Positions 22,282-41,143 of a stretch of DNA of 64,000 nucleotides are shown piece by piece. The notes beneath the pieces were generated by a model that was given only the letters and a program-made list of their open reading frames with translations, had not been told where the DNA came from and ran no database searches. Every line of letters begins with the position of its first letter. Positions within the stretch are counted from its first letter, which is position 1. A program made the translations under genes and the position numbers. Origin of the DNA: Exiguobacterium acetylicum. Lineage in GTDB: Bacteria > Bacillota > Bacilli > Exiguobacteriales > Exiguobacteriaceae. Where the stretch lies: NCBI RefSeq assembly GCF_019890935.1, contig NZ_CP082333.1:3019501-3083500 (forward strand). The letters run 5' to 3'.

Positions 22282-23112
22282 ATGACGTATAAAATGATTG
22301 TTCTCGATTTAGATGATACCTTGTTGACAAGTGACCATACGATTTCACCACGTACGAAAGAAGCTTTACTCGCTGCGCAGCGTCGCGGGAAGAAGGTCGT
22401 GCTCGCTAGCGGTCGTCCGACATTTGCCATGCTCGACCTCGCAAAAGAACTGGAACTCGCCCGCTACGGCAGTTACATCCTAAGCTTCAATGGCGCTTCA
22501 ATCATTGATTGTAAAACGAACGAGTCGCTCTTCCTCAGCACGCTTTCCCCGGAGACGGTCCACCGCCTCGACGATTTGAGTAAACGGGAGGGTGTCTACA
22601 TCCACACGTATGTCGGACATGAGATCCTGACAGAGGAACCGAATGAATATACGACGCTCGAAGGACAACTGACAGGCATGGAGGTCATTCGTGTCGCTGA
22701 TTTTAAAGCCGCGATTCAAACACCTGTCGTCAAGTGTTTGATGATGGCAGAAGAGATGCACCTCGCGCGCGTCGAACAGACGCTTCAACAGGAACTTGCG
22801 GGTGAACTCGCGGTGGCTCGCTCGAAGCCATTTTTCCTTGAATTCACAGAAGATGGTGTCACAAAAGGCACAAGCCTTGCCTTACTGTCTGAAAAACTGG
22901 GAATCGCTCAAGAAGAAGTCATTGCTTGTGGAGACGGCAACAACGATCTATCGATGATCGAATGGGCAGGTCTTGGTGTCGCGATGGCGAATGCAGCCGA
23001 TACCGTCAAAGAAAAAGCACAGTATATGACCGCTTCGAACGATGAAGATGGTGTTGCTCTCGTCGTCGAAAAGTTCATGATGGATGAGGAGCCGGCTATC
23101 TCAAGCCGCTAA
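22282..23112 (+). CDS. Cof-type HAD-IIB phosphatase
   Basis: 276 residues. Motif I DLDDTLLTSD near residue 8, motif II SGRP near 43, and motifs III/IV in KGTSLALLSEKLGI and CGDGNNDLSMI near 213. The C2B cap between them is typical of the Cof/YkrA/YxeH group, which dephosphorylates sugar phosphates, FMN or PLP. ATG 22282 has AAAGGGG 9 bp upstream. A full copy of the 343-bp repeat follows before its terminator. Confidence 0.88.
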   Translation: MTYKMIVLDLDDTLLTSDHTISPRTKEALLAAQRRGKKVVLASGRPTFAMLDLAKELELARYGSYILSFNGASIIDCKTNESLFLSTLSPETVHRLDDLSKREGVYIHTYVGHEILTEEPNEYTTLEGQLTGMEVIRVADFKAAIQTPVVKCLMMAEEMHLARVEQTLQQELAGELAVARSKPFFLEFTEDGVTKGTSLALLSEKLGIAQEEVIACGDGNNDLSMIEWAGLGVAMANAADTVKEKAQYMTASNDEDGVALVVEKFMMDEEPAISSR

Positions 23113-23114
23113 GT

Positions 23115-23457
23115 GACTCAAAAAAAGAATGACGCGTCTTTTCACGCCCTTTCCCCAGGCGAGACACAAGCCAATTTTCCTGCTTCATTCAAGCAGGAAA
23201 ACGGGTCTTGTTTGTCTCTGACAGCGCAAAATTGTGCTTTTTCCTGTAGGAGTTGCGTGTGACGCGTCTTTTTTTATACCTGGAAGAAGGATCAGAGAAG
23301 CATTTCGTTCACTCGACATCGCTTCCTAGGGAAAAACAAGCAAGAGCGACCCTGCAGCGAAGAGGTGTGATGCTTGTCCCTGGAAAACGATTCGAGACGA
23401 ACAACAAGCGCAATCCTTCTCGTTAAGAGAAAAACTGCGCTTTGTCTTCAGTCTCAG
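23115..23457 (+). repeat. Non-coding foldback repeat, full copy A
   Basis: 343 bp from GACTCAAAAAAAG to CAGTCTCA; a reverse-oriented copy of the same length is at 40752-41094. No open frame of note. First module: GACGCGTC at 23131-23138 and again at 23261-23268, enclosing GAGACACAAG (23161-23170) paired with CTTGTTTGTCTC (23207-23218), and a perfect 11-bp hairpin TTTTCCTGCTT/AAGCAGGAAAA (23175-23201), ending in a T run. Second module holds an ACAAGC/GCTTGT foldback and a hairpin around TTCTC-GTTAA-GAGAA near 23419-23432. It sits between the HAD stop and its terminator, sense strand. Confidence 0.85.
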
Positions 23458-23482
23458 GCTGACTTTTGAGTCAGCCTTTTTT
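23456..23482 (+). terminator. Terminator after repeat copy A (serves the HAD gene)
   Basis: Stem AGGCTGACT/AGTCAGCCT with TTTG loop followed by TTTTTT on the plus strand. Confidence 0.8.
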
Positions 23483-24960: not shown

Positions 24961-24978
24961 GCGCACACAAAAAGGGCC

Positions 24979-25147
24979 GACTTAAAAAATGACGCGTCCT
25001 TTCACGCCCTTTCCTCAGACGAGACACAAGCAAGAGCGACCCCGAAGTGAAGCGGCGCGATGCTGGTCCCAGGAAAACGATGTGTGATGAACAAAAAAGC
25101 GCAATCTTTCTCGTTAAGAGAAAAATTACGCTTTACCTTCAGTCTCA
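24979..25147 (+). repeat. Non-coding foldback repeat, copy B (internally deleted)
   Basis: 169 bp. Both ends match copy A, but the segment equivalent to 23172-23341 is absent. In copy A that segment lies between two ACAAGC direct repeats (23166-23171 and 23336-23341), and copy B keeps one, as expected for deletion between short repeats. The 3' hairpin AGCGCAAT...TTCTC-GTTAA-GAGAA is retained. It lies just 3' of the TagA-like gene, sense strand, and is embedded at a terminator. Confidence 0.85.
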
Positions 25148-25176
25148 AGGCTCCCGACACGGCGGGAGCCTTTTTG
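25147..25176 (+). terminator. Terminator after repeat copy B
   Basis: AAGGCTCCCG/CGGGAGCCTT stem with a short loop then TTTTT. Sequence before the repeat (AAAAAGGGCCGAC) resembles the left arm (AAGGCTCCCGAC), so the repeat appears to have entered this hairpin. Confidence 0.75.
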
Positions 25177-32660: not shown

Positions 32661-32736
32661 AAAAAAGACTGACTCAAATGTCAGTCTCTACACAGATAAG
32701 GGCGCGAAAGGACGCATCATTCTTTTGGATTCAGCC
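32661..32736 (-). repeat. Remnant of the foldback repeat, copy D, with proC terminator
   Basis: On the minus strand, GGCTGAATCCAAAAGAATGATGCG with CCTTTCGCGCCCTT matches the first ~45 bp of copy A (AAGAATGACGCGTC, CACGCCCTTT) with several changes; the rest is missing. It ends at the hairpin AGACTGAC/GTCAGTCT plus TTTTTT (about 32665-32688), which terminates proC. As with the other copies it is sense to the gene just upstream. Confidence 0.65.
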
Positions 32737-40725: not shown

Positions 40726-41143
40726 AAAAGAGGAACAAGGGGAAATCCCTTTGAGACTGAAGACAAAGTGCAATTTTTCTCTAACGAGAAGGATTGCGCT
40801 TTTTTGTTCGTCTCGAATCGTTTTCCTGGGACAAGCATCGCGCCGCCTCACTTCGCTGCAGGGTCACTCTTGCTTGTTTTTCCCAAGGAATCGATGCCGA
40901 GTGAACAAAGCACTTCTCTGATTGTTCTTTCGATATAAAAAAATGACGCGTTACACGCCACTCCTACAGGAAAAAGCGCGATTTTGCGCTGTCAGAGACA
41001 AACAAGACCCGTTTTTCTGCTCGAATAGAGTGGGAAAACTGGCTTGTGTCTCGCCTGAGGAAAGGGCGTGAAAAGACGCGTCATTTTTTGAGTCAGCCCA
41101 TTTGTCTATAATCTACAAGAAGAAATCCCTTTGTTCCTCTTTT
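40726..41143. terminator. queF terminator split by a repeat insertion
   Basis: Left arm AAAAGAGGAACAAGGGG (40726-40742) and right arm CCCTTTGTTCCTCTTTT (41127-41143) are complementary over 17 bp but are now 384 bp apart. GAAATCCCTTTG occurs at both junctions (40742-40753 and 41122-41133), as a target-site duplication would. Without the insert they form one compact hairpin with an AAAT loop. Confidence 0.85.
40752..41094 (-). repeat. Non-coding foldback repeat, full copy C
   Basis: 343 bp, same length as copy A and reading on the minus strand: GACTCAAAAAATGACGCGTC first, TCAGTCTCA last. The inserted segment between the flanking 12-bp duplications is 40754-41121, so about 27 bp on its 5' side is not shared with copy A. 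The first-module foldback (ATGACGCGT-CTTTT-CACGCC against GGCGTG-T-AACGCGTCAT) pairs better here than in copy A. Sense with respect to the XRE gene. Confidence 0.85.

What the first reader, a model, noticed from the sequence alone, without database searches (positions are those of the whole stretch)
23115..23457. A family of 343-bp non-coding foldback repeats, with four copies in 64 kb
Copies at 23115-23457 and 40752-41094 (reverse) have the same length and share ends (GACTCAAAAAA...ATGACGCGTC and TTCAGTCTCA). A shorter copy is at 24979-25147 and a remnant at 32661-32736. They encode nothing but are rich in inverted repeats: an outer GACGCGTC pair, GAGACACAAG/CTTGTTTGTCTC, an 11-bp TTTTCCTGCTT hairpin, and a 3' AGCGCAAT/TTCTC-GTTAA-GAGAA hairpin. 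Some stem differences between copies keep pairing (for example GCGCAAT with ATTACGC or ATTGCGC via wobble). This looks like a non-autonomous mobile element whose RNA folds, comparable in kind to B. cereus bcr repeats or MITEs.
Basis: partly seen in the sequence, partly recalled or inferred. Interest (0 to 1): 0.78.

Follow-up and report, generated by a model that had tools for sequence, protein, structure and literature searches.

The report
Terminator-hunting mini-transposons in Exiguobacterium
The repeats are dead-end copies of mobile elements (IS1182 family) that land on, and either replace or duplicate, the hairpins that stop transcription at the ends of genes; a similar target preference was known in staphylococci, but these mini-versions and the clean duplication of whole hairpins appear not to have been described.

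Summary
The repeats are real: about 43 places in the window's own Exiguobacterium genome and matches in all 19 genomes of the genus. They are not one 343-bp family but two nested non-autonomous elements of the IS1182 insertion-sequence family. Form 1 (~235 bp, the common kind; copy D is a remnant) has ends GGCTGACTCAAAA...TTTTGAGTCAGCC and a foldback core. At 10 of 10 form-1 sites compared with relatives, the empty site holds a site-specific terminator-type hairpin that the element has exactly replaced, without target duplication: the stem-loop-replacing transposition reported for staphylococcal IS1272. Form 2 (copies A, B, C) is a composite: the form-1 core joined to the ends of a second IS1182 element. 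Its intact 1,662-bp parent, in two relatives, is flanked by exact duplications of the whole target hairpin (22-30 bp). So two related elements hit the same kind of target with opposite outcomes. The core is also a repeat in many Bacilli, absent from Rfam. Stems covary strongly, but wobble pairs give no sign that + strand RNA is what is selected. No intact IS1182 transposase was found in the host genome.

The parts
23115..23126 (+). Copy A: what is left of the form-1 left end (GACTCAAAAAAA), 2 bp after the stop codon of the upstream gene (22282-23112)
   Evidence: empty relatives read TAACTCAAAAA + terminator hairpin here
23127..23272 (+). Copy A: foldback core (core I) shared by form 1 and form 2
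   Evidence: alignment A1 of 47 copies; covariation
23273..23456 (+). Copy A: module II = reverse complement of the non-coding left end (leader) of the IS1182-family element IS-a; terminal repeat TTTGTCTTCAGTCTCA at 23441-23456
23456..23477 (+). Terminator-like hairpin AGGCTGACTTTTGAGTCAGCCT + TTTTT; differs from the hairpin of empty relatives
24974..25147 (+). Copy C: form 2 with an internal deletion (core start 24974-25034 + module II end 25026-25147); a full-length copy stands at the same site in E. indicum, and the site is empty in two other relatives
25149..25170 (+). Host terminator hairpin GGCTCCCGACACGGCGGGAGCC, also present in the empty relatives
32661..32736 (-). Copy D: form-1 remnant (both ends, core mostly lost); in E. 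indicum likewise; relatives carry other terminator hairpins at the spot
40752..41121 (-).
40941..41086 (-). Copy B: core I
40752..40940 (-). Copy B: module II
41122..41131 (-). Copy B: target duplication, left copy (AAGGGATTTC)
   Evidence: empty site AAGAGGAACAAAGGGATTTCCCCTTGTTCCTCTT in G001 (L295)
40742..40751 (-). Copy B: target duplication, right copy (AAGGGATTTC), within the host terminator hairpin

Best explanation
The repeats are miniature, transposase-less derivatives of two IS1182-family insertion sequences, which choose targets by shape: the hairpin of an intrinsic terminator, presumably extruded as a DNA cruciform. Form 1 is the left end (terminal repeat, foldback core, hairpin) and right end of an IS-c-type element with the transposase gene deleted; it replaces the hairpin, leaving the flanking A and T tracts (sites and replacement shown; enzyme and strand chemistry inferred). 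Form 2, in the window, appears to have arisen when a form 1 replaced the palindrome next to the right end of an IS-a-type element and the transposase was lost (inferred from one shared junction). The composite then moved with IS-a ends, duplicating the target hairpin or its tip (shown). The elements carry terminator-like hairpins of their own, so that a hit terminator is probably replaced by another terminator and insertion is nearly neutral (inferred). IS1182 transposase must act in trans; no intact copy was found in the host genome, so the family there is probably stranded.
For: Empty sites: 10 of 10 form-1 sites have, in close relatives, a different palindrome of 22-37 bp at exactly the element's place, each folding better than all but 0-8 of 300 shuffles. 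No direct repeats flank form 1 (mean 4.6 bp against 4.4 between unrelated sites). Parents: IS-a, 1,662 bp, transposase 470 bits to NF033551 IS1182 (cut-off 270), same end sequences as form 2, five copies each between two exact copies of a whole hairpin, 22-30 bp. IS-c in G005: terminal repeat GAGGGTGACTCA.../...TGAGTCACCCTC, core I homologue (75 bits), hairpin, IS1182 transposase. Form 2 sites: 29-bp hairpin duplication (L127), 22-bp (L139), inner-hairpin duplication at B with the empty site seen in G001. One terminator was hit by three different elements in three species: G000 form 1, G002 form 2, G016 IS-b. Terminator-like hits in the elements exceed shuffles. Papers: IS1272 removes its target stem-loop without duplication, targets are terminators, and its transposase lacks a stop codon (PMC5678879, PMC4923244); a whole-stem-loop duplication was proposed there only as pathway b of a model.
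Against: No autonomous element with exactly the form-1 end GGCTGACTCAAAA was found; the nearest (G005) differs at a few bases. No intact IS1182 transposase in the host genome. Copies A and C have damaged left ends, so their own insertion events cannot be read cleanly. Terminators evolve fast, so for distant relatives (sites A, D) a changed hairpin is weaker evidence than for the ten close comparisons. Only 10 form-1 sites were compared.
Confidence: 0.88

Rival explanations
1. A conserved structured RNA (3' UTR element, sRNA or RNA-level regulator) that is the reason for the family's spread and conservation.
For: Strong fold (z -7.2); covariation above all shuffles and slides; core conserved across 12 of 94 sampled Bacilli genera with compensatory changes.
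Against: G.T and A.C departures equal (32 vs 38), as expected of DNA palindromes or of no strand-specific RNA constraint; unrelated gene contexts; presence/absence at orthologous sites; no Rfam match; no consensus promoter excess.
Confidence: 0.08
2. Spread by homologous exchange between terminators (gene conversion) and not by transposition.
For: Some copies look like mosaics (L026: IS-a right end with a form-1 body; L014/L028 share an unusual tail).
Against: Replaced hairpins share no sequence with the element, and junctions are exact; form 2 and IS-a make target duplications.
Confidence: 0.04
3. REP/REPIN-type repeats mobilised by a RAYT or IS200/IS605 (HUH, Y1) transposase.
For: Palindromic, intergenic, multicopy; the genome has one Y1 transposase.
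Against: That Y1 gene is the tnpA of a single IS605-type element with tnpB; no copy is next to it, the nearest is 1.7 kb away beyond another gene. Form 2 has DDE-type ends and duplications and an IS1182 parent.
Confidence: 0.02

Closest known systems
IS1272 / TnSha1 of staphylococci (IS1182 family; PMC5678879, PMC4923244)
   Same: Target chosen as a stem-loop, mostly terminators, no sequence consensus; hairpin removed or replaced, no duplication (form 1, IS-b); transposase without its own stop codon (IS-a); repeated hits on one terminator; tandem duplication of a left end (IS-a copy in G010).
   Different: Form 1 is a miniature element without transposase at ~36 places; IS-a and form 2 duplicate the whole hairpin or its tip, an outcome only proposed (pathway b/c) for this family in those papers.
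MITEs of bacteria in general
   Same: Short, no coding capacity, ends shared with an autonomous IS, multicopy, intergenic.
   Different: Form 1 has no target duplication because it replaces its target; form 2 is built from parts of two different IS.
B. cereus group bcr repeats
   Same: Intergenic foldback repeats of similar size in a Bacillota genome.
   Different: No sequence or end relationship was found or tested; here the parents are identified as IS1182 family.

Membership tests
IS1182 family (autonomous parents IS-a, IS-c) | IS1182-family DDE transposase | tested here: met
   IS-a: NF033551 470 bits (cut-off 270), DDE_Tnp_1_6, DUF772; IS-c in G005 390 bits
IS1182 family (autonomous parents IS-a, IS-c) | Terminal inverted repeats bounding the element | tested here: met
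   CTCAGACTGAAGACAAAG.../...TTTGTCTACGATCTGA; GAGGGTGACTCA.../...TGAGTCACCCTC
MITE (forms 1 and 2) | No transposase gene, ends shared with an autonomous element | tested here: met
   Form 2 ends = IS-a ends; form 1 left end and core = those of IS-c by homology, not identity
MITE (forms 1 and 2) | Mobility: occupied and empty orthologous sites | tested here: met
   10/10 form-1 sites; B; C
MITE (forms 1 and 2) | Target-site duplication | tested here: met
   Form 2: 22-29 bp hairpin or 10-12 bp hairpin tip. Form 1: absent, as for IS1272
IS1272-type stem-loop-replacing transposition (form 1) | Target palindrome removed, no duplication, no sequence consensus | tested here: met
IS1272-type stem-loop-replacing transposition (form 1) | Carried out by an IS1182-family transposase | not testable with these tools
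   Needs a transposition assay; no intact transposase in the host genome
REP/RAYT or IS200/IS605 | Linked Y1 transposase with the repeats at its flanks | tested here: not met
A family of Rfam 15 | Covariance-model match | tested here: not met
   No match for the core at gathering or E <= 1
B. cereus bcr repeats | Sequence or end homology | not tested
   bcr sequences were not fetched

The most novel reading that the evidence does not exclude
The core, conserved across Bacilli and found upstream of IS1182 transposases in two lineages, is a functional nucleic-acid part of the transposition machinery (an RNA or a folded DNA strand) that helps the transposase recognise hairpin targets or controls its expression, and copies of it spread because of that role.
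Probability: 0.1. Interest if true: 0.85.

Novelty: new variant of a known kind. Interest (0 to 1): 0.52.

Why it matters
It shows, with natural before-and-after sites, that one transposase family attacks terminator hairpins with two opposite outcomes (replace or duplicate the hairpin). That makes the proposed cruciform-cutting model testable with two closely comparable enzymes. It also shows that the ends of many genes in one genus carry terminators supplied by mobile elements, and it ties a widespread, unnamed Bacilli repeat to IS1182 elements.

Tried and rejected
Rfam (three scans): nothing for the core. Phage and plasmid collections: no match. REP/RAYT: the only Y1 transposase is an ordinary IS605-type element. 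The pattern search for the IS-a end brought mostly chance matches; the hits in duplicated permease genes (1476540, 1480044, C2:95609) are coding sequence. A general link of the core with IS1182 elements in all Bacilli was rejected: 39 IS1182-type loci gave only 5 core hits, 4 of them upstream of a transposase (L268's lies downstream). A joined-flank query was used so as not to gather the whole genome, which the session does not lay as a file.

Full report
Observation. Copies A and B align at 87% over the stated ~343 bp, C and D are real partial copies. In the whole genome (G000, 3.39 Mb; genus Exiguobacterium from the named relatives of a neighbouring gene, up to 98% protein identity) three searches merge to 43 places, 36 with the core. 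This is a lower bound. All 19 genomes of the genus have matches to both parts. Plasmid and phage collections have none.

Two forms. Most copies in the genome are not like A and B. Form 1 is ~235 bp: RRGGCTGACTCAAAAAA - core (bounded by GAATGACGCGTC/GACGCGTCATTC) - hairpin GATAAGGGTGGCAG-N9-CTGCCACCCTTATC - AGAGACTGACTTTTGAGTCAGCCYY. Form 2 (A, B; L002, L004, L005) has the same left half, but its right half is module II, and its outermost left end, where kept, is TCAGATTGTAGACAAA. With TTTGTCTTCAGTCTCA at the right, this makes an imperfect 16-bp terminal inverted repeat.

Form 1 replaces terminators. For ten form-1 sites I searched the two flanks, joined without the element, in seven relatives and read the spanning sequences. 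In every case the empty allele has a palindrome exactly where the element stands, different at each site. Example L011: empty AAAATGAC[AGGATGGACCGCGGTCCATCCT]GTCATTTT, occupied AAAATGACGAGGCCGACTC...GAGTCAGCTCCGTCATTTTT. The palindromes fold better than all but 0-8 of 300 dinucleotide shuffles. The A and T tracts, and in some sites outer stem pairs, remain. There is no direct repeat beyond chance. One site holds elements in opposite orientation in G000 and in G006 and G017, as expected of independent hits on one hairpin; this was also reported for TnSha1 (PMC4923244).

Module II and its parent. Upstream of module II in several relatives lies, on the opposite strand, an IS1182-family transposase. 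The complete element, IS-a, is 1,662 bp. Its transposase gives NF033551 470 bits against a cut-off of 270, with Pfam DDE_Tnp_1_6, DUF772 and DDE_Tnp_1. The reading frame runs out of the element (..MRVCLRSE) into the target. Five copies (L168, L170-L173) are each flanked by two exact copies of a whole hairpin, 22-30 bp, e.g. GAAGCAGTGGACACCGCGTCCACTGCTTC. Form-2 copies show the same: L127 29 bp, L139 22 bp, and near-exact in L004 and L005. In window copy B the duplication is the hairpin tip AAGGGATTTC, and the undisturbed hairpin AAGAGGAACAAAGGGATTTCCCCTTGTTCCTCTT is present in G001.

Parent of form 1. A scan with NF033551 over the genus found the family in 9 of 19 genomes, none in G000. The G005 element (IS-c) begins GAGGGTGACTCA, then carries a core homologue (75 bits to the model of the core; its sequences contributed to that model), a strong hairpin and the transposase, and ends CTTTTGAGTCACCCTC. 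G005 also carries a form-1-like element with the same kind of ends (L096). An element identical in its ends to the G000 form 1 was not found. A third group, IS-b (G004, G016), has ends GAGGCTGGGACATAACT and sits between the A and T tracts without duplication.

Composite origin. In IS-a the right end is followed by a palindrome: read inward, TCAGATTGTAGACAAA-CCCTCATTTC.. (L169), or with one base changed in the others. In form 2 the same end continues TCAGATTGTAGACAAA-TGGGCTGACTC... The junction lies inside the palindrome and is alike in L127, L004 and L002 (with point changes). This fits one event in which a form 1 replaced the palindrome, followed by loss of the transposase. This step is an inference.

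One terminator, three hits. The terminator of form-1 site L010 is intact in G006 and G001. It is replaced by form 1 in G000 and by IS-b in G016, and it carries form 2 with a 29-bp hairpin duplication in G002.

Structure. On 47 aligned cores, 96.7% of cells pair, and 11 pairs have changes on both sides against 4.9 expected; 0 of 500 shuffles and no slide reach it. Related copies can inflate such controls. G.T and A.C departures are equal (32 and 38, p = 0.55; 20 and 21 distinct types). So the stems are kept, but nothing shows selection on RNA of the + strand; DNA palindromes would behave the same. Terminator-like sites within and beside the copies exceed shuffles: 13 vs 2.6, 5 vs 0.5, 5 vs 0.7.

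Beyond the genus. A covariance model of the core matched 28 of 200 Bacilli genomes in 12 of 94 genera. The consensus is GCTTTCCGCGGGCG..AGCCTCCTCG..GGGTCTC..CTTTTCCCGCAGGAGTC. Rfam 15 has no such family. IS1182 transposases occur in 63 of the 200 genomes drawn from the class, but only a few have the core beside them: G005 (three copies) and G156 of a sister genus (L245) upstream in sense orientation, and L268 downstream. The core is thus tied to IS1182 elements in two lineages, not in general.

Known or new. Stem-loop targeting with removal of the hairpin is known for IS1272/TnSha1 of the same family (PMC5678879, PMC4923244). Wan et al. drew whole-hairpin duplication as a possible pathway b. 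I found no paper that documents it, nor one on these miniature elements, in the open-access library searched; subscription literature and ISfinder could not be checked. Hence 'new variant of a known kind'.

Noticed in passing
L128 / L169 (G010:C9 ~191618-191904) and L111 (G010:C11): The left end of the IS-a element is partly duplicated in tandem, as reported for IS1272 (IRL-side duplication).
   Followed up: no
L168, L170-L173: The IS-a transposase frame has no stop codon inside the element; its end is supplied by the target hairpin, so that each copy encodes a slightly different C-terminus.
   Followed up: partly
L026 (G000:C1 ~937117): A mosaic: a host hairpin and the IS-a right end at the left, a full form-1 tail at the right; its origin is not clear.
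   Followed up: no
L303 (G000:C1:1015614-1017096): A single IS605-type element with tnpA (Y1) and a TnpB of 378 aa in the own genome.
   Followed up: partly
L094, L095 (G015, G007): Core I stands next to a second, Bacillus-type version of the same repeat (GACTCCTGCGGGAAAAGCG...), two generations of the family side by side.
   Followed up: no
L177 (G000:C1:1475732-1481500) and L178 (G000:C2:94002-96437): Near-identical large permease-like genes in tandem on the chromosome and once more on contig C2 (probably a plasmid).
   Followed up: no
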